Origin: Prevotellaceae bacterium
Lineage (GTDB): Bacteria; Bacteroidota; Bacteroidia; Bacteroidales; UBA932
Length of the DNA stretch: 36,410 nt
NCBI GenBank assembly: GCA_031277925.1
Contig: JAITLJ010000200.1
Location: forward strand, 1-36,410
Reading direction: 5' to 3'
Shown: positions 2,909-27,201 of the stretch, one piece after another
Layout of the letters: every line of letters begins with the position of its first letter
Position numbering within the stretch: position 1 is the stretch's first letter
Translations under genes and position numbers: made by a program
The notes under the pieces: generated by a model
What the model was told of the DNA's origin: nothing
Databases searched by the model: none
What the model saw: the letters and a program-made list of their open reading frames with translations, nothing else

Positions 2909-3052
2909 TTTTAATGTTAACTTTGATTTTATTTATATTTTAAAAGACATTCGGTATGAAAAAATATTTTAAAATCAATTGCTTTTCATGCAGGCAAAAT
3001 TAATAAATTAAGTGTTAATTCATTACCACGTTTGATTTTTTAACATTTCTTT

Positions 3053-3211
3053 TGTCTAATAATTTATATTATAGGCGATGGTAAAATATTGTATAATAAT
3101 GAATTATAAATTATTTTTTAAGCATTTAAAAAAACATAAAATTTGGAATTATCAAATAATTACATATCTTTGCGAAAATTAATTTTGTCCTATAATATAA
3201 ATTATTGGACA
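3053..3211 (+). repeat. 159-bp segment bounded by 23-bp inverted repeats; candidate invertible promoter segment (copy 1)
   Basis: Left TGTCTAATAATTTATATTATAGG (3053-3075); right CCTATAATATAAATTATTGGACA (3189-3211) is its reverse complement with 1 mismatch. Same-length homologue at 17393-17551. Confidence 0.85.
3142..3172 (+). promoter_or_regulatory. Bacteroidetes-type promoter reading toward SusC 1
   Basis: TTTG (3142-3145) - N19 - TATCTTTG (3165-3172), matching the TTTG / TAnnTTTG primary-sigma consensus of Bacteroidetes. Confidence 0.75.
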
Positions 3212-3443: not shown

Positions 3444-6400
3444 ATGATGAAAAATTTAATTTTATCTTCAGAAACACTGAAAAAAAGATTTTTATTAATG
3501 CTTCTTTTTATTGGTTTTTCTGTGTTAACATTTGCACAAACAAGAACAATCACGGGAACTGTGATTGACGAGAATGATGAAGCTCTAATTGCAGTTTCAG
3601 TATTTGTGCAGGGAACAAAAATCGGTACTTTTACCGATGCGAATGGAAAATACACATTGAATAATGTTCCCGAAAAAGCGACTCTTGTTTTTTCGAGTAT
3701 CGGTTATACAGCGCAGTCAATTGCTGTTGGCGACCGCAGCATTATTAATGTTACGTTAGTAGAAGAAGCCTCGCGACTTGAAGAGGCTGTAGTTACGGCA
3801 GAATTTGGCTTGAAACGCGTGGCACGGTCTATTGGTTCAAGCGTACAAAATGTAAAAGCCGAAGAAATTGTAGAATCAGGTCGTGATAATTTTATCACAG
3901 CCCTGCAAAGTCGCATTGCAGGTATTTCCGTTACATCTTCGGGAGGAACGCCCGGGTCATCTACAAATATTGTATTAAGGAGTGTTACTTCTATTTCGGG
4001 CAGTAATCAACCTTTGTATGTAATTGACGGCGTGCCGATGAACAATTCAACTTTCGACCCTCTCGGATTTGCGGGTCCTGAATTATTTTCAGCACGTTCT
4101 TTGGATTTTGCAACAATGGGTAATGACATTAATCCAGAAGATATTGAAAGCATGAGCGTACTGAAAGGAGCAGCGGCGGCGGCTCTTTACGGTTCGGACG
4201 CTTCAAATGGCGCTATTGTTATTACTACTAAAAAAGGTTCGTCTGGACGAAGTAAGGTACAATATGCAACAAGTATGCGCTTTGATAACGCTTACGGTTA
4301 TCCTGAAATACAAACCAAATATGCAAACGGTCGATATGGAACAACCAATTATTATTTCACATCACGCTATGGCGATTTGTATCCTGAAGGAACGGTACTT
4401 TACGATAATTTTAAGGCATTACTACAAACGGGTAAGACCTCTACGAACAGTTTTTCTGTTGATGGAGGAAATGATAAATTTACGCTTCGCGCTTCAGGAA
4501 AATATCTCGACCAAACAGGAGTTGTAAAAGGTACTGATTATTCACGTTTGAATTTAGGTATTTCTGGTAAAGCCGAAGTAACAAAATGGCTACAAATAGA
4601 TGGCTCGATGAGTTATGCCGAAACAACCAATACCAAAGTTGAAAAAGGTAATTACGGGCCTATGCCAAAAACATTTAACTGGCCATCTGTTGACGACATG
4701 TCAGTTTATTTAGATGAGGATGGCAAACACATGCGGTCGCCGGATTATTACACAGATGGAGACCTTATAAATCCATTGTTTGCAATAAATAAAAATAAAC
4801 TTTACGATGAAAATCAAAGTTTCACCGCATCATACACTTTAACTTTAAAACCGCTTGCAAATTGGTATGTAATTGCCAAAGCCGGTATTAATGCCAATTT
4901 CTATTCATACGAAGCAGGAGTACATCCTTACAGCGCTTCATATAATGATGGAAAAGGATCTTATAGTGTAGTGAACGGCAAAACGCTTTATCCATCATTA
5001 ACATTGTTGACAGGTTATAATCTGTCAATAAAAGATTTTGAATTTGGAGCTCAATTCGGCTATACGCAGTTAGAACGTACAACGCATAATCTCTCTTCCT
5101 ATGGAACAAATTTTATGGTTATTGATTTTATGGGACTTAACAATTGTGACGCAGAATCTATGCAAACATTAACAAGAAATACAACAAAACGCACACAAGG
5201 ACTATTCGGGCAGTTTGAGGCATCTTATAAAAATATGGCATTCCTTACATTACGCGGACGTAATGACTGGTCGTCAACTTTGCCAAAAGCAAATAGAAGT
5301 TATTTTTATCCTGCCTTAGAATTGTCATTTATAGCGTCGGAACTTTCTTTTTTGAAAAATCATCGTGTAATAAATTATCTCAAATTGCGCGCATCTGTTG
5401 CTCAAGTGGGTAAAGATCCTGATCCTTTGGCTATTTATCCCGCTTTACAGGCTACTGCCACAGCAGACGTGAACAGTGGAAGTTTTGGAGGAGGTTACCG
5501 TTACGGATATACAGGTCCTAATACAGCGCTAAAACCAGAAATGACAACAGAATATGAAGGCGGCTTTGAGGCGCGTTTATTAAAGAACAGGCTTAATCTG
5601 GATTTTTCCGTTTATACCCGTACTTGCGAAGATCAATATGTAAAAGGTTTTCGTTTAAGCTACGCAACAGGTTTTGTATTAAACAATATGAATGTAGGTA
5701 CTTTTGATACTTGGGGATGGGATTTTCATGCTGATGGAGATATTATAAAATCAAAGAATTTTACATGGAATTTTGGATTAAATATGAGTAAGGCAAAATC
5801 AAAAGTTACTTATTTACCCGAAAACGTTTCTGAATATTATGACGCATATACTTATGGAAACGTATCTGGTACACGTAACGGGATTAAAGTAGGATATTCG
5901 ATAACTACAATTACAGGAACTGCCAAGTTGCGCAATAAAAATGGAGATATTATTATTAATCCTTCAACAGGTCTTCCTATGGTTTCTGACCAATATACGG
6001 TTATAGGCGACAGAGAACCAAAATTAAGATATAATTTTACAACTTCGCTGAGCTATAAAGATTTTCGGCTAACGGCGGCATTTGCCGGACGATGGAAAAC
6101 CACGGTATTAAACGGAACAAAAAGAAGCATGCTATCAAATGGTTTAAGCTGGGAATCTGTTGAAATTCGTGAAATGAAACCTTACGTTTTCAAAGGCGTT
6201 TTAAATGATGATTTTGTAAATTCTGACAATCCTACCGTTAATACTATTGCTCACACTTATGGTATGGGAACAAGCGGAACCATATACGTAGGAACGCCCG
6301 AAGACTGGGTTGAAGAAGGAGTAAATTATCTGCGCCTTGAAGAAATCAGACTGTCGTATAATGTACCGAGACAGTGGTTGCAAAAAACATTCAGAGGAGT

Positions 6401-6584
6401 AGTGTCACAAGTAACTGTTTATGTTGCAGGTAACGACTTGATTACATTTACAAACTATTCAGGCATAGATGCCGTTGGAAATACAGCATCTGCCGCATTA
6501 GGCGGAACCGGTGGCGTTGGCATTGATACATATTCTATTCCAAGCCCGCGAGCTATTACTTTTGGTTTAAGTTTAACTTTGTAA
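3444..6584 (+). CDS. SusC/RagA family TonB-linked outer membrane protein (locus 1)
   Basis: Signal peptide ending TFAQ, carboxypeptidase-like repeat (ITGTVIDENDEALIAVSVFVQGT...), plug (LQSRIAGISVTSS...PLYVIDGVPM, SVLKGAAAAALYGSDASNGAIVITTKKG), barrel ending ITFGLSLTL. Confidence 0.95.
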   Translation: MMKNLILSSETLKKRFLLMLLFIGFSVLTFAQTRTITGTVIDENDEALIAVSVFVQGTKIGTFTDANGKYTLNNVPEKATLVFSSIGYTAQSIAVGDRSIINVTLVEEASRLEEAVVTAEFGLKRVARSIGSSVQNVKAEEIVESGRDNFITALQSRIAGISVTSSGGTPGSSTNIVLRSVTSISGSNQPLYVIDGVPMNNSTFDPLGFAGPELFSARSLDFATMGNDINPEDIESMSVLKGAAAAALYGSDASNGAIVITTKKGSSGRSKVQYATSMRFDNAYGYPEIQTKYANGRYGTTNYYFTSRYGDLYPEGTVLYDNFKALLQTGKTSTNSFSVDGGNDKFTLRASGKYLDQTGVVKGTDYSRLNLGISGKAEVTKWLQIDGSMSYAETTNTKVEKGNYGPMPKTFNWPSVDDMSVYLDEDGKHMRSPDYYTDGDLINPLFAINKNKLYDENQSFTASYTLTLKPLANWYVIAKAGINANFYSYEAGVHPYSASYNDGKGSYSVVNGKTLYPSLTLLTGYNLSIKDFEFGAQFGYTQLERTTHNLSSYGTNFMVIDFMGLNNCDAESMQTLTRNTTKRTQGLFGQFEASYKNMAFLTLRGRNDWSSTLPKANRSYFYPALELSFIASELSFLKNHRVINYLKLRASVAQVGKDPDPLAIYPALQATATADVNSGSFGGGYRYGYTGPNTALKPEMTTEYEGGFEARLLKNRLNLDFSVYTRTCEDQYVKGFRLSYATGFVLNNMNVGTFDTWGWDFHADGDIIKSKNFTWNFGLNMSKAKSKVTYLPENVSEYYDAYTYGNVSGTRNGIKVGYSITTITGTAKLRNKNGDIIINPSTGLPMVSDQYTVIGDREPKLRYNFTTSLSYKDFRLTAAFAGRWKTTVLNGTKRSMLSNGLSWESVEIREMKPYVFKGVLNDDFVNSDNPTVNTIAHTYGMGTSGTIYVGTPEDWVEEGVNYLRLEEIRLSYNVPRQWLQKTFRGVVSQVTVYVAGNDLITFTNYSGIDAVGNTASAALGGTGGVGIDTYSIPSPRAITFGLSLTL

Positions 6585-6595
6585 AATTATATAAA

Positions 6596-8554
6596 ATGAA
6601 AAAAATATTAATAATATTACTATCAAGTGTTCTTGTATTTTCAAATACAGGTTGTGATGCTTATTTGGATGTAAACAAAAATGTTGATGCTCCCGACTAT
6701 GTTGATGATTTTCTATATCTTGCAGGGATTCAACAATCATATCAAGATTATTATTATGATATAAGAGCAGTAGGCCCATTAACGCAAATGATGGGGACAA
6801 CAGATTATACTTCTTTTGCAAATCATTATTATTCAAAAGCGAGCGATGCAGCAGGTCAAATGTGGCGATTGTTGTGGCTGCAGGGAATTAACCTTGAAAA
6901 TATGATAACTCAGGCGACAGCAAGCGAACGCTGGACATTGGCCGGTATGGGCTATGCAATGAAAGCCTACACTTGGGACATGCTTACAAAATATCATGGA
7001 GAGATGCCTTGCAAACAAGCATACGAATCGGGATTATTGGCTCACGAATATGACTATCAGTATGATATTTATCCCATTGTTAGAGGATGGGCTTACAAGG
7101 CTATTGAATATCTGTCGAAAACAGATAAAACGATTTATGGAACGCAACTTTCTGATAATGACTACATTTATGGAGGAGATGCGGAAAAATGGAAAAAATT
7201 TGCATACGCAGTATTAGCCCGTAATTATATTTCACTGTCTAATAAAACTGATTTTGTAAGCAGCGGATTTGCTGACTCTGTAATATATTGTGTTAATAAT
7301 TCTTTTGCATCATCATCTGATGATGCAACAATCAGAGTTAGCACAGATGATGAAATAGATACTAAATTTATGAATTTTTGGGGCGTATCGCGTGCAAATT
7401 TATCAAGAATATATTTTCAGCATGAATACGCTGTACAAATTATGACAGGAACAGTGCCTCAATATGATAAAAATACAGGAAATAAAGTTCCTAATTCAAG
7501 CAATCAGAATATTCTTGGCGTTTATCCTTATGAACTCAATCCTGTTCAAATTCTTGCTGATACTGTTTCATCCGTTTCTGGACATTTTGACCCGCGTACC
7601 ACTTTATTATTTGGATGGACATCGCCTAAATATTCTTCTTTCACACTTGAAGATACTGTAACGATAATCAATGATTTAGGATTGCCAAATTTACTCGATA
7701 CTGTAAGATTGCCTTACATAGAAGTATTTACTACCGAGGTGGATTATATTCGTAGATATGTAAGCAAAAGGTTTTACGGAGGTTCATTTACCACTGAAGT
7801 AGGTCCAATCGGGTCGGCGCCAAGTTTTTACGGAAGAAACGCAAGTGGTTCAACCACTTCCGATGGAGTTGGACGCTGGTTGTATAGAAACGGAGCGCCT
7901 TATATATTAACAACTTTTGCCGAAATGAAAATGTGCGCAGCCGAAGCATACTGGAAAAAGGATGATAAGGCAAGCGCTTTACAAGCATTGCAGGATGGCA
8001 TTGCAGGTCACATGGATTTTTGCCAAAAATACATTTACTTAACAACTATAGGTGGTGATAAAATTACTCCAGCTACATTTAGATTATTGGCAAATGAATA
8101 TCTTGCAGGTCCTTATGTTGGCGGTTTAACGGTAAACGATTTGACTCTCAGCCACATTATGATGCAAAAATGGGTATGCTTATATCCGTGGGGCGCTCAT
8201 GAAGCCTGGGTTGATTTGCGTAAATATCATTATGATATAGATTATACAGGAGATTATCCGAAAACAGGTAACGGTTGGGAACGAAATGAAGTGTATATGA
8301 AATGGGACGATAATGAAGACAAGGTTTATAAAGGTTTTTACTTGCGTCCTGCAAATGTGGAGCATCGCAAAACCGCGTACAATATTGATAATGATGGCTC
8401 TCCGTGTTACCGTATTCGTCCTCGCTATAATTCCGAATATATGTGGAATTTGCCAAGTTTGAAGAAATTATTGCCCATACCTGGAGATGCCTTAAATTAT
8501 CACTGCTCTATTCCATGGTTTGCTTATCATGGAGAAATGCCAACAAATTTATAA
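6596..8554 (+). CDS. SusD/RagB family (SusD-like) nutrient-binding lipoprotein (locus 1)
   Basis: Immediately downstream of SusC; lipobox-like VFSNTGCDAYLDVN; SusD-type helical sequence and C-terminal MWNLPSLKKLLPIPGDALN. Confidence 0.88.
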   Translation: MKKILIILLSSVLVFSNTGCDAYLDVNKNVDAPDYVDDFLYLAGIQQSYQDYYYDIRAVGPLTQMMGTTDYTSFANHYYSKASDAAGQMWRLLWLQGINLENMITQATASERWTLAGMGYAMKAYTWDMLTKYHGEMPCKQAYESGLLAHEYDYQYDIYPIVRGWAYKAIEYLSKTDKTIYGTQLSDNDYIYGGDAEKWKKFAYAVLARNYISLSNKTDFVSSGFADSVIYCVNNSFASSSDDATIRVSTDDEIDTKFMNFWGVSRANLSRIYFQHEYAVQIMTGTVPQYDKNTGNKVPNSSNQNILGVYPYELNPVQILADTVSSVSGHFDPRTTLLFGWTSPKYSSFTLEDTVTIINDLGLPNLLDTVRLPYIEVFTTEVDYIRRYVSKRFYGGSFTTEVGPIGSAPSFYGRNASGSTTSDGVGRWLYRNGAPYILTTFAEMKMCAAEAYWKKDDKASALQALQDGIAGHMDFCQKYIYLTTIGGDKITPATFRLLANEYLAGPYVGGLTVNDLTLSHIMMQKWVCLYPWGAHEAWVDLRKYHYDIDYTGDYPKTGNGWERNEVYMKWDDNEDKVYKGFYLRPANVEHRKTAYNIDNDGSPCYRIRPRYNSEYMWNLPSLKKLLPIPGDALNYHCSIPWFAYHGEMPTNL

Positions 8555-8573
8555 ACATTTAAAATATAATATC

Positions 8574-9485
8574 ATGAAAATATTAAAATATTACATCAGT
8601 ACAGTTTTTATTGCAATTCTTATTTTATCATCATGCGAAAAGCATAAACTTATATATGATGCAGAATCAGTTGACGAGAGTAAAGTTATGTTGCAAATAC
8701 ATTTTTTTGTGCCTATAGCAACCGGAGCTACAAATGCAATAAATCAAGTTAGAATTAACGATATTCCTGTTACCTTTAACAATCTGCTTCCATATAATGG
8801 AATACCCGATGGAGCTACAGGCAAATTTTTTACTGCAAATGCAGGTAGTGTAAAAATTCAATTTTTCAAAGGTTCGGCAGCCAATGGCTACACGGAAATT
8901 TACAACAAGTCTGTTAATCTTGAAGGTGGCAAAGCATATAATTTAGTTATACATGATTTTAATGAACTTCCTTCGATTATTGACAATGGTTTTCCCTATC
9001 AAAGAAATTATGATGGATATGTTACAGACAGTATATGCTATGTGCGATTCTATAATTTCTATTACGATAGCGACACTACACCGTTATGTAAAAATGGAGA
9101 TAAATTACAATTACAATTTGTTTACTATAAAACAACATCGGCAGAAGCTAGTTGGACACCTCCATATCCTCTTACAGATACATTTACTATAGGTAAACCT
9201 GTTGGTTTTGGAGAAGCAACAGAATGGACTCCAGTGCGTCTAAGAAAAACATACTATAATTCCTCTGGGTACATGCCTGTTAGATGGTTTATTCGTTTGA
9301 TAAAAGCAGATGGAACGAAAAAGTGGATTCCTTATATGAGTAGTACAACAAGTGGGCAAATAACGTGGACTTACGCAGAAACTCAATATATTGGTCGTAG
9401 AACTCATAAAATATTAGGCGGTAAATCAGGTGGTGGAGTTTACGCAAATCAGATATGGGCATTTCAGACATGGACCGCTATCTGA
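8574..9485 (+). CDS. SusD-associated lipoprotein of unknown function
   Basis: Start set at ATG 8574 (MKILKYYISTVFIAILILSSCEKHK lipoprotein signal) rather than the 8520 track start, which overlaps SusD. Third gene of the operon; terminator follows. Confidence 0.75.
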   Translation: MKILKYYISTVFIAILILSSCEKHKLIYDAESVDESKVMLQIHFFVPIATGATNAINQVRINDIPVTFNNLLPYNGIPDGATGKFFTANAGSVKIQFFKGSAANGYTEIYNKSVNLEGGKAYNLVIHDFNELPSIIDNGFPYQRNYDGYVTDSICYVRFYNFYYDSDTTPLCKNGDKLQLQFVYYKTTSAEASWTPPYPLTDTFTIGKPVGFGEATEWTPVRLRKTYYNSSGYMPVRWFIRLIKADGTKKWIPYMSSTTSGQITWTYAETQYIGRRTHKILGGKSGGGVYANQIWAFQTWTAI

Positions 9486-17392: not shown

Positions 17393-17551
17393 TGTCTTAT
17401 AATTTATATTATAGGCGATGGTAAAATATTGTATAATAATGAATTATAAATTATTTTTTAAATATTTTAAAAAATCTGGTATTTGCAATTATCAAATCAT
17501 TATATATCTTTGTAAAAATTAACTTTGTCCTATAATATAAATTATAAGACA
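17393..17551 (+). repeat. 159-bp segment bounded by perfect 23-bp inverted repeats; candidate invertible promoter segment (copy 2)
   Basis: TGTCTTATAATTTATATTATAGG (17393-17415) and its exact reverse complement CCTATAATATAAATTATAAGACA (17529-17551). Confidence 0.88.
17482..17512 (+). promoter_or_regulatory. Bacteroidetes-type promoter reading toward SusC 2
   Basis: TTTG (17482-17485) - N19 - TATCTTTG (17505-17512), at the same offset inside the segment as in copy 1. Confidence 0.75.
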
Positions 17552-20907: not shown

Positions 20908-20919
20908 AATAATATGAAT

Positions 20920-22473
20920 ATGAAAAAATATCTTATATCAATAACGTCTGTTATATTAATGATGTTAAACATTTCGTGCAACGAATATCTCGACGAAGTA
21001 CCCGATAACAGACTTGAAATAGACAACGATGAAAAAATTACCAGACTTTTGGGAAGCGGATACGCCGACCATTTGTTTGTATTCACTACCGAAATGATGG
21101 CTGACAATGTTGACAACATAGGCGACAGACTGACATCATATTCTCGTCTTCAGGATGAAATGTACGCATGGTCGGATATTCAGGAAATAGGTAACGAATC
21201 GCCAAAACTCGTATGGCAAACCTATTATCATGCTATAGCAACAGCCAATCAGGCGCTTGATGCTATAGAAAAAGCGGGAAATCCTTCACGCTTGAACCCG
21301 CAGCGAGGCGAAGCTCTTATGATTAGAGCATTCCACCATTTTTATCTCGTAAATGTATTTGCAAAACACTATTCTACAGCCAGCGGCGACACCGACCTCG
21401 GTATTGTGTATATGGAAAAATCGGAAACAACGGTAAGCCCTCAATACAACCGCGAACCTGTTGCTGAAATTTATAGAAAAATTGAACGCGATATTGAAGC
21501 AGCGCTTCCTTTGATTGATGACAATATTTACGAAATACCTAAATATCATTTCAACCGCAAAGCTGCTTATGCCTTTGCGGCACGCTTTTATCTGTTCTAC
21601 AGAAAATACGATAAGGTTATAACCTGCGCTAATGAAGTGCTTGGTGAAAATCCTGCCAGAGTACTGCGCGATCTTACCCGCATTTCAAGCCTTGTGCAGG
21701 AGTACGGACCTATTGCCGAAGATTATGTAAAACCCGAACAGAATGCAAATTTACTGCTGATTGCAGGATATTCTCAATTAGGTCGGATATTCGGAAATTA
21801 TTCAACAGGAAAAAAGTACATGCATTCCCGATATTTGGCTGGTACAGAAACAACTCAATGTAACGGACCTTGGGGTATTTATGTCAGTGGAATGTTTCGT
21901 CTTCCATCTTTTTCATATTCGGCAGGATACATAGCAGTGCCTAAAATACCAAACCTGTTTGAATATACCGACCCTGTAGCAGGAATAGGATATCGCAGAA
22001 CTGTTTTTCCTGCTCTGCATGCCGACGAAACATTACTCTGCAGAGCCGAAGCATATATTATGCAGGAAAACTATGATGCAGCTACGGAAGATTTGGCTTT
22101 ATGGATGTCGCAACATACAATTTCAACGGTAACTCTTTCGCGAGACATTATAAACAACTTTTATTCTACTCAACAGTATTACAACCCAGATGATCCTACG
22201 CCGAAAAAAAAGTTGAACCCCGAAGTTCCCATTGTTTCCGAAGAACAGGAAAACTTTTTACAATGTCTGGTGCAATTCCGCCGTATCGAAACAATATTCG
22301 AAGGCTTGCGCTGGTTTGATATTAAACGCTTCGGCATTGTAATATATCGCCGTTACGTTGATGTAAACAACTCGGTTACTGTTACCGATGAACTGAAATT
22401 AGACGACCCGCGCAGGGCGATTCAACTGCCGGCATCTGTTATAAGCGCAGGGCTTGAACCTAATCCAAGATAA
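20920..22473 (+). CDS. SusD/RagB family nutrient-binding lipoprotein (locus 2)
   Basis: Lipobox MMLNISCNEYLDEVPDNR; EALMIRAFHHFYLVNVFAKHY (SusD TPR-like); ETIFEGLRWFDIKRFG C-terminal motif. Start at 20914 or 20920. Confidence 0.92.
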   Translation: MKKYLISITSVILMMLNISCNEYLDEVPDNRLEIDNDEKITRLLGSGYADHLFVFTTEMMADNVDNIGDRLTSYSRLQDEMYAWSDIQEIGNESPKLVWQTYYHAIATANQALDAIEKAGNPSRLNPQRGEALMIRAFHHFYLVNVFAKHYSTASGDTDLGIVYMEKSETTVSPQYNREPVAEIYRKIERDIEAALPLIDDNIYEIPKYHFNRKAAYAFAARFYLFYRKYDKVITCANEVLGENPARVLRDLTRISSLVQEYGPIAEDYVKPEQNANLLLIAGYSQLGRIFGNYSTGKKYMHSRYLAGTETTQCNGPWGIYVSGMFRLPSFSYSAGYIAVPKIPNLFEYTDPVAGIGYRRTVFPALHADETLLCRAEAYIMQENYDAATEDLALWMSQHTISTVTLSRDIINNFYSTQQYYNPDDPTPKKKLNPEVPIVSEEQENFLQCLVQFRRIETIFEGLRWFDIKRFGIVIYRRYVDVNNSVTVTDELKLDDPRRAIQLPASVISAGLEPNPR

Positions 22474-26391: not shown

Positions 26392-27201
26392 TTACCATGT
26401 TATAATTTTATCAACTATTTCCCTCTGTTCGTTTATCGTTCGTCGCAAATAAATTCTTGTTGTTTCAATGCATTTGTGTCCCATTAAATCGGCTAAGAGC
26501 GCAATATCATTGCACTTTTTCAGAAAATTTTTAGCAAATCGATGACGAAAGGAATGAGGATAAATTACTTTGGGATTTAATCCATATTTTCGTGCAAAAA
26601 TTTTCAGATATCGCGAAATTGTTCTTGCACAAAGTCGTCCGCCATATTGGGTTTGAAAAATATAACCTAACGAAATCTTTTCTTTATTCAACCATACCAT
26701 TGCTTGCAGGCGTAAATTTTTTGGGATATATAATCGCCTGATATTTCCGCCTTTGGTATATATATCCAAATGTCCCGCTTCTACATGTTCGACTTTTATC
26801 TGTATCAGTTCGCTGATTCGGGCTCCTGTTGCCGTCAAAAACCAAACAATAAAATACCATTTAATAAGTTTGTCATGTTTGAGTTGATTTTTAAAAAATT
26901 TATAGTCGGCTTCGCTAATCACATTCTCAAGGAAGTTTTTTTGCTGTATTCTTACAAATTTTATTTTTAAACGATCTTTTTCTTGAAATTCAAGAAATTT
27001 GTTTAAGGCCTGTAACCGTGCATTTACGGTTTCGGGTTTGAAATTTTCAATCAGCCATACTTTATAGGCTAAAAGATTCTCTTTATTAACATTTTCGTAA
27101 AGAAGAAAATAAGTGTTAACAGCGCTAGTATAAGCTGTAATTGTGTTTTTTGCAAGTTCATTTTTTTCAAGAAATTTTTGAAATTTTGTTATCATATTCA
27201 T
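26392..27201 (-). CDS. Tyrosine recombinase / phage-integrase family protein
   Basis: SAM-like N-terminal core-binding region (FLEKNELAKNTITAYTSAVNTY); catalytic ATGARISELIQIK, HSFRHRFAKNFLKK, LMGHKCIETTRIYLR. Confidence 0.93.
   Translation of the reverse strand: MNMITKFQKFLEKNELAKNTITAYTSAVNTYFLLYENVNKENLLAYKVWLIENFKPETVNARLQALNKFLEFQEKDRLKIKFVRIQQKNFLENVISEADYKFFKNQLKHDKLIKWYFIVWFLTATGARISELIQIKVEHVEAGHLDIYTKGGNIRRLYIPKNLRLQAMVWLNKEKISLGYIFQTQYGGRLCARTISRYLKIFARKYGLNPKVIYPHSFRHRFAKNFLKKCNDIALLADLMGHKCIETTRIYLRRTINEQREIVDKIITW

What the first reader, a model, noticed from the sequence alone, without database searches (positions are those of the whole stretch)
17393..17551. Second copy of the same 159-bp inverted-repeat promoter segment upstream of SusC 2
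The segment has exactly the same length and a perfect 23-bp inverted repeat. Hand alignment to copy 1 gives roughly 17 substitutions and no indels, including a 63-bp identical run (17399-17461 = 3059-3121). The promoter boxes sit at the same offsets. Flanking sequences outside the repeats do not align, so the conserved unit is exactly the inverted-repeat-bounded block. Two independent SusCD loci sharing this cassette suggest a genome-wide regulon switched by one recombinase, or a mobile promoter element that spreads by supplying promoters.
Basis: partly seen in the sequence, partly recalled or inferred. Interest (0 to 1): 0.85.

Follow-up and report, generated by a model that had tools for sequence, protein, structure and literature searches.

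The report
Invertible promoter cassettes at dif-like sites
The segment is one of at least 15 copies in this bacterium of a 159-bp promoter cassette that can apparently be flipped to turn outer-membrane uptake genes on or off, and its ends look like the site the cell uses to separate its chromosomes, which suggests a housekeeping-type recombinase runs a genome-wide switchboard.

Summary
Observation confirmed: 17393-17551 and 3053-3211 are 159-bp inverted-repeat blocks with 17 substitutions, no indels, a 63-bp identical run and unalignable flanks. They are two of at least 15 homologous cassettes in the 84%-complete genome; three further loci share only the repeats. All ten congeners held carry the sites. 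None was found outside the genus at the stringency used. Each cassette carries one outward Bacteroidota promoter. Across the genus the gene start lies mostly 27-50 bp outside one end. A motif (TTTAACAYTTC), fixed outside the gene-distal end, gives polarity: 19 cassettes point to the gene (ON), 19 away (OFF). Homologous susC loci occur in both states. So these are invertible, phase-variable promoters; both window copies are ON. New: each repeat is an ATAA-N6-TTAT Xer-type site. In five congeners its arms equal those of the genus's solitary, syntenic dif candidate, differing in the spacer. Cassette bodies resemble others in the same genome more than those at orthologous loci, implying cassette exchange. 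The recombinase is XerCD or an orphan hsdS-shufflon-family recombinase at 26392-27201; which one is unproven. Inversion within one locus was not seen directly, as no reads were available. New variant of a known kind.

The parts
17393..17551 (+). invertible promoter cassette, copy 2 (promoter points right = ON towards susC2)
17393..17419 (+). left Xer-type site: outer arm TGTCTTATAA (17393-17402), 6-bp spacer TTTATA (17403-17408), inner arm TTATAGGCGAT (17409-17419)
   Evidence: read from sequence; geometry compared with dif candidate
17524..17551 (-). right Xer-type site: inner arm TTTGTCCTATAA (17524-17535, identical to the XerC-side arm of the dif candidate of G001 and G002), spacer TATAAA (17536-17541), outer arm TTATAAGACA (17542-17551)
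17482..17512 (+). Bacteroidota-type promoter: -33 TTTG 17482-17485, 19 bp, -7 TATCTTTG 17505-17512
   Evidence: TAnnTTTG -7 consensus cited in PMC4747536
17590..20907 (+). SusC-like TonB-dependent receptor (1105 aa), start codon 38 bp from the cassette
20914..22473 (+). SusD-like lipoprotein (519 aa)
3053..3211 (+). invertible promoter cassette, copy 1 (promoter points right = ON)
3142..3172 (+). promoter of copy 1: -33 TTTG 3142-3145, -7 TATCTTTG 3165-3172
3039..3049 (+). gene-distal flank motif TTTAACATTTC, 3 bp outside the cassette (not found at copy 2)
3444..6584 (+). SusC-like TonB-dependent receptor (1046 aa), 232 bp from the cassette; its homologue in G001 also has a cassette, 236 bp away
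6596..8554 (+). SusD-like lipoprotein (652 aa)
26392..27201 (-). candidate invertase: 269-aa XerA-like tyrosine recombinase with conserved R-K-H-R-H-Y residues, orphan member of the hsdS-shufflon recombinase family

Best explanation
The segment is a phase-variable promoter switch. Two inverted Xer-type sites (about 11-bp arm, 6-bp spacer, 11-bp arm, core ATAA-N6-TTAT) bound a short segment with one outward promoter. A tyrosine recombinase of the Xer family inverts the segment, so the promoter faces the susCD (or other envelope) gene starting mostly 27-50 bp outside one end (ON) or faces away (OFF). At least 15 such cassettes form one regulon in this genome, and the same kind occurs in all ten congeners. 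Because the sites of a genome mostly share arms and spacer, recombination at both sites of two cassettes could also swap bodies between loci, which would explain why bodies resemble one another within a genome rather than at orthologous loci. Shown: cassettes, promoter motifs, both orientations at homologous loci, site geometry, identity of arms with the dif candidate in five congeners, within-genome similarity of bodies. Inferred: that inversion occurs now, that promoter orientation controls expression, and the recombinase. Estimated share: XerCD about 0.5, the orphan recombinase at 26392-27201 about 0.35, both or another 0.15.
For: Copies: 15 homologous places plus repeat-only copies in G000; about 22 loci in G001 and about 12 in G006; sites in all 10 congeners. 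Promoter: a TAnnTTTG box near one end in all site pairs of G000, G001 and G006. Orientation: a flank motif lies on exactly one side of 40 of 72 cassettes (0 on both; background 0.01 per cassette) and always opposite a near gene start (20 of 20); with it as polarity mark, 19 are ON and 19 OFF. Homologous susC loci differ in state: G001 C6 and C104 ON, C214 OFF, G000 C3 OFF, with matching 5' leaders; G001 C156 ON, C85 OFF; one TonB receptor OFF in G000 C25 and ON in G001 C96. dif-like: a solitary site next to a conserved Lys-rich gene in 8 of 11 genomes (glutathione peroxidase on the other side in 6) is TTTGTCCYATAA-NNNATA-TTATGTTAAGTT; cassette sites in G003, G004, G008, G009 and G010 are TTTGTCCYATAA-TTTACA-TTATGTTAAGTTT. 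XerD and XerC-like genes are present; no serine recombinase in G000. Exchange: every body with a close relative has its nearest one in its own genome; at 8 of 8 locus pairs the cross-species identity (0.55-0.78) is below the same-genome value (0.60-0.89).
Against: No single locus was seen in both orientations in one population, as no reads were available. In G000 and several other congeners the inner arm is XerC-like (TTATAGGACA) instead of the XerD-like TTATGTTAAG, so the match to the host dif is only half there. The solitary site is called dif from uniqueness and synteny, not from position relative to the replication terminus. Some cassettes lie next to housekeeping genes (thrS, valS), where a strict on/off switch would be odd, although those genes start 286-410 bp away and may have promoters of their own. 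Regulated genes of about half the loci could not be assigned.
Confidence: 0.8

Rival explanations
1. The cassettes are inverted not by XerCD but by the orphan 269-aa recombinase encoded in this window (26392-27201), a member of the hsdS-shufflon invertase family that has lost its hsdS genes and now acts in trans on promoter cassettes.
For: Orthologues in 8 of 11 genus members and only 9 of 139 other family genomes; 3 missing MAGs are expected from incompleteness (P = 0.21). 65 of 76 relatives outside the genus lie within 4 kb of hsdS, 0 of 10 in the genus. hsdS shufflons of this family also use ATAA-N6-TTAT inverted sites. The palindromic (two-alike-arm) sites of G000, G001 and G007 fit a single recombinase. 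The only other non-Xer tyrosine recombinases in G000 sit on short contigs with phage-like neighbours.
Against: Not found in G004 and G009, which have many cassettes whose sites equal the dif arms. No cassette or site lies next to the gene. It does not explain why cassette arms equal the dif candidate's arms.
Confidence: 0.35
2. The cassettes are MITE-like mobile promoter elements spread by a transposase; orientation differences are just insertion orientations.
For: Dispersed copies with varied neighbours; inverted terminal repeats; constant length; several copies at contig ends.
Against: No target-site duplication at the copies inspected (read). The outermost bases vary between loci while the internal ATAA-N6-TTAT core is nearly invariant, the opposite of transposon ends. 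Positions and leader lengths are orthologous between species. A fixed flank motif lies on the gene-distal side only, mostly 11-15 bp out. Copies with the same sites but an unrelated body exist (C25, C202).
Confidence: 0.07
3. A fixed promoter flanked by a palindromic regulator-binding site; the repeats are operators and nothing inverts.
For: Each site is itself a near-palindrome and could bind a dimeric regulator.
Against: 19 of 38 scorable promoters point away from the gene, which a fixed promoter cannot explain; whole segments, not only operators, are reversed relative to matching leaders.
Confidence: 0.05
4. Assembly artefact: short repeats joined in wrong orientation by the assembler.
For: Fragmented MAGs; several copies end contigs; the C45 copy sits in a perfect 68-bp palindrome.
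Against: The same architecture, motif polarity and leader spacing recur in 11 separate genomes with different bodies.
Confidence: 0.03

Closest known systems
Multi-locus invertible promoters of Bacteroides fragilis (Mpi, Tsr19, Tsr0667 regulons)
   Same: Short promoter segments between inverted repeats, unlinked loci, surface polysaccharide and SusC/SusD targets, TAnnTTTG promoters (PMC4747536; PMC12632263).
   Different: Those use dedicated serine or tyrosine invertases, with at least Tsr19 encoded next to a target. Here the sites have Xer/dif geometry, the nearest candidate recombinase is unlinked to any cassette, and cassette bodies behave as exchangeable units.
pdif modules of Acinetobacter plasmids
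   Same: Segments bounded by inversely oriented XerC-spacer-XerD sites; modules invert and are exchanged between sites with matching 6-bp spacers (PMC13141974).
   Different: Here modules are about 150-172 bp promoter-only cassettes on chromosomal contigs upstream of envelope genes; about half the congeners have XerC-like inner arms.
Chromosomal dif site and XerC/XerD
   Same: ATAA-N6-TTAT core; arms TTTGTCCYATAA and TTATGTTAAGTT shared with the genus's solitary dif candidate in five congeners.
   Different: Paired, inverted, many copies per genome, spacer TTTACA instead of NNNATA in those congeners.
Type I restriction hsdS shufflons (inverting loci with a recombinase)
   Same: The window's recombinase belongs to the same protein family, and those shufflons use ATAA-N6-TTAT inverted sites (PMC7394358).
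   Different: No hsdS near the gene anywhere in this genus; the putative targets are promoters elsewhere in the genome.

Membership tests
Bacteroidales invertible promoter (inverton) | promoter between inverted repeats, upstream of a gene | tested here: met
Bacteroidales invertible promoter (inverton) | both orientations occur | tested here: met
   19 ON and 19 OFF across loci; homologous susC loci in opposite states. Between loci and species, not within one locus
Bacteroidales invertible promoter (inverton) | inversion at one locus within a population | not testable with these tools
   no reads held
Bacteroidales invertible promoter (inverton) | dedicated invertase linked to at least one target | tested here: inconclusive
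   no site within 1.5 kb of the recombinase genes examined; candidate 9 kb from copy 2 in the window
Xer/dif-type recombination site | two arms around a 6-bp asymmetric spacer, core ATAA-N6-TTAT | tested here: met
Xer/dif-type recombination site | arms match the host's own dif | tested here: inconclusive
   met for both arms in G003, G004, G008, G009 and (against the genus-wide dif candidate) G010; only the XerC-side arm matches in G000 and other congeners
Xer/dif-type recombination site | XerC and XerD present in the genome | tested here: met
   XerD above cut-off (338 vs 329.6 bits); XerC-like best match but below cut-off (299.9 vs 335.2)
Xer/dif-type recombination site | recombination depends on XerC/XerD | not testable with these tools
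   needs a reporter assay
pdif module | bounded by inversely oriented sites with matching spacers | tested here: met
pdif module | distinct XerC and XerD arms at every site | tested here: not met
   inner arm is XerC-like in G000, G001, G002, G006, G007, so it is filed as 'works like', not as a member
hsdS shufflon | recombinase of that family | tested here: met
hsdS shufflon | hsdS genes next to the recombinase | tested here: not met
   0 of 10 genus loci within 4 kb or the DNA held
MITE | target-site duplication | tested here: not met
   flanks of the G000 copies inspected by eye, no direct repeat at the edges
MITE | ends shared with a transposase-bearing element | not tested
   no IS family search made

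The most novel reading that the evidence does not exclude
The housekeeping chromosome-dimer-resolution recombinases XerC/XerD act on dozens of dif-derived sites as the master switch of a genome-wide phase-variable promoter regulon and also shuffle promoter cassettes between loci; recombination with the true dif is avoided by a changed spacer or a changed inner arm. If FtsK-dependent, switching would be tied to cell division.
Probability: 0.4. Interest if true: 0.9.

Novelty: new variant of a known kind. Interest (0 to 1): 0.72.

Why it matters
Phase-variable promoters in Bacteroidales are normally credited to dedicated invertases. A regulon whose sites carry the arms of the host's own dif would mean that the chromosome-segregation recombinases, or an orphaned restriction-system invertase, were recruited to randomise nutrient-uptake and surface genes across a genus. 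It also offers a case in which promoter cassettes are exchanged between loci, giving concerted evolution of regulatory DNA. Both points are directly testable with a two-site plasmid reporter and with existing metagenome reads.

Tried and rejected
MITE or transposon reading: flanks inspected for target duplications, none seen; conservation pattern is wrong for transposon ends. Duplicate-locus reading: flanks 35-46% identical. Serine invertase of the Mpi type: no PF00239 match in G000, G002, G006, G008, G009. Cassette next to its recombinase: none within the roughly 1.5-kb flanks examined of 30 tyrosine and 10 serine recombinase loci. Phage recombinases at C109 and C132: set aside because their contigs carry phage- or mobile-element-like genes. 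Cassettes in viral contigs: none by the paired pattern. Cassettes in other genera: 0 in the non-genus members of 149 relatives, 0 outside the genus in 150 family genomes by a single-site pattern, 0 of 395 order genomes; these are stringent patterns, so diverged relatives would be missed. C22/C134 shared flank as proof of inter-locus recombination: dropped, because that flank is a repeat with copies in C105 and C28.

Full report
Observation. The two window segments are as described: 159 bp each, 17 substitutions, no indels, a 63-bp identical run at 17399-17461, and flanks at background identity. Copy 2 has a perfect 23-bp inverted repeat; copy 1 has one mismatched position. Both carry a Bacteroidota-type promoter (TTTG, 19 bp, TATCTTTG) pointing right, towards susC genes at 3444 and 17590.

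Copies in the genome. The window is contig C66 of a 2.15-Mb, 217-contig, 84%-complete genome (G000). A search with copy 2 finds 15 homologous places, down to partial copies. Three further loci share the repeats but not the body: C25, C202 and a contig-end copy on C108. Neighbouring genes are mainly SusC-like receptors and outer-membrane or lipoprotein genes, but some cassettes lie between housekeeping genes.

Copies in relatives. A stringent paired pattern finds 16 places per strand in congener G001 and 7 in G006, with none in genomes of other genera among 149 relatives. A looser single-site pattern finds sites in all ten congeners. Among 150 family members, only six genomes, all of the window's own genus, match a near-palindromic form. 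None of 395 order members matches the dif-type paired form. Contig lengths identify four congeners with public 'Prevotellaceae bacterium' MAGs: G007 with JAISOH010000195, G005 with JAISDB010000224, G002 with JAIRZQ010000160 and G010 with JAIRRX010000043.

One promoter per cassette, both orientations. In all site pairs found in G000, G001 and G006, TAnnTTTG lies near one end. Oriented by that promoter, the nearest gene start is often 27-50 bp outside the cassette, on the promoter side at some loci and on the other side at others. Homologous loci show both states. The susC beginning MKKILSIAF has near-identical leaders at G001 C6 and C104 (promoter towards the gene) and at G001 C214 and G000 C3 (promoter away). 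The susC beginning MKKxLLFF is ON at G000 C134 and C164 and G001 C156, but OFF at G001 C85. A TonB receptor of 899 aa is OFF at G000 C25 and ON at G001 C96.

A fixed polarity mark. TTTAACAYTTC (at most one mismatch) occurs within 60 bp of exactly one end of 40 of 72 cassettes and never of both; 0.01 per cassette is expected from DNA 200-1000 bp away. It sits mostly 11-15 bp out and was opposite the near gene in all 20 cases where both could be scored. Using it alone as polarity mark, 19 promoters point away from it (ON) and 19 towards it (OFF), with 2 undetermined. The motif was found by inspection, so its definition is post hoc, but the one-sidedness and the opposition to genes were not built in. 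Its role is unknown; an accessory site for the recombinase is a guess.

The sites are Xer-type. Each repeat has the form arm-ATAA-N6-TTAT-arm with an asymmetric spacer (TTTATA, TTTACA and others) in inverted orientation at the two ends. In G003, G004, G008, G009 and G010 the site is TTTGTCCYATAA-TTTACA-TTATGTTAAGTTT. A search for TTATGTTAA-type sites also returned one solitary site in each of eight congeners (G000 included), next to the same Lys-rich gene in all eight and with glutathione peroxidase on the other side in six: TTTGTCCYATAA-(TTTATA, TCTATA or TATATA)-TTATGTTAAGTT. Uniqueness, 28-bp geometry and synteny make it the dif candidate; its position relative to the terminus could not be checked. 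Where cassette and dif arms are the same, the spacer differs (TTTACA against NNNATA). Where the spacer is the same (G001), the inner arm differs (TTATAGG). This would keep cassettes from recombining with dif, an inference that rests on the spacer-identity rule reported for pdif modules (PMC13141974).

Concerted evolution. Outside a few divergent bodies, every cassette body has its closest relative in its own genome. At eight tested pairs of orthologous or homologous loci, cross-species body identity (0.55-0.78) is below the mean of the five best same-genome matches (0.60-0.89). Flanks and leaders remain locus-specific, so bodies have been replaced between the sites. Site-specific cassette exchange or gene conversion limited to the cassette could both do this. 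A related hint: a flank present only twice (98% identical over 106 bp) is joined to two different cassettes on contigs C22 and C43, but both are contig ends.

Recombinase. G000 has no serine recombinase and five tyrosine recombinases: XerD, an XerC-like protein, two on short contigs with phage-like genes, and the 269-aa protein at 26392-27201 in this window. The last belongs to a widespread family; 65 of 76 relatives from other genera lie within 4 kb of hsdS genes, as in inverting Type I restriction loci, but none of ten genus members does. It is found in 8 of 11 genus genomes, and three absences are within what incompleteness predicts (P = 0.21). hsdS shufflons of this family also carry ATAA-N6-TTAT inverted sites. 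XerCD is favoured by the identity of cassette and dif arms; the orphan enzyme is favoured by its genus-wide retention without hsdS and by the two-alike-arm sites in G000. I put XerCD at about 0.5 and the orphan at about 0.35.

Literature. Multi-locus invertible promoters, including SusC/SusD targets, are known in Bacteroides fragilis with dedicated invertases (PMC4747536; PMC12632263). Xer-exploiting elements at dif-like sites are known as Microviridae proviruses in Bacteroidetes (PMC3091885) and pdif modules (PMC13141974). Searches for papers joining promoter inversion with Xer/dif listed none whose title or abstract describes it, within the held library.

Verdict. An invertible-promoter regulon of a known general kind, with an unusual site type, an unusual candidate enzyme set and signs of cassette exchange between loci. 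Inversion itself remains to be seen in reads.

Noticed in passing
L057 (G000 C45) about 9147-9395: One cassette sits inside a perfect palindrome: the 23-bp repeat continues for 45 more identical bases on each side (68-bp arms).
   Followed up: partly
L060 16613-16773 and L056 3782-3887 (G000 C22, C43): A flank present only twice in the genome (98% over 106 bp) is joined to two different cassettes with different far flanks; may reflect recombination between loci or a contig-end artefact.
   Followed up: partly
L056, L061, L071, L060 flanks of cassettes (G000 C43, C215, C108, C22): A dispersed intergenic repeat of about 110 bp (containing a GTGTTAAA stretch, the reverse of the gene-distal motif) lies directly outside several cassettes.
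   Followed up: partly
L315, L311, L310, L330, L313, L344, L345, L346: Solitary dif candidate with conserved neighbours (Lys-rich protein gene, glutathione peroxidase) in eight genomes of the genus.
   Followed up: yes
L348-L356 (IMG/VR contigs): Nine viral contigs carry an exact TGTCCYATAATTTAYATTATGTTAA site, possibly phages that integrate at dif in related hosts.
   Followed up: no
L069 7072-7231 and L070 4397-4567 (G000 C25, C202): Cassettes with matching or dif-like sites but an unrelated body; C202 resembles the dif-identical type of other congeners.
   Followed up: partly
window 26392-27201 and L227-L306: The recombinase family is 58-77% identical across Bacteroidota, Bacillota and Spirochaetota records, mostly beside hsdS, which suggests wide horizontal transfer.
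   Followed up: partly
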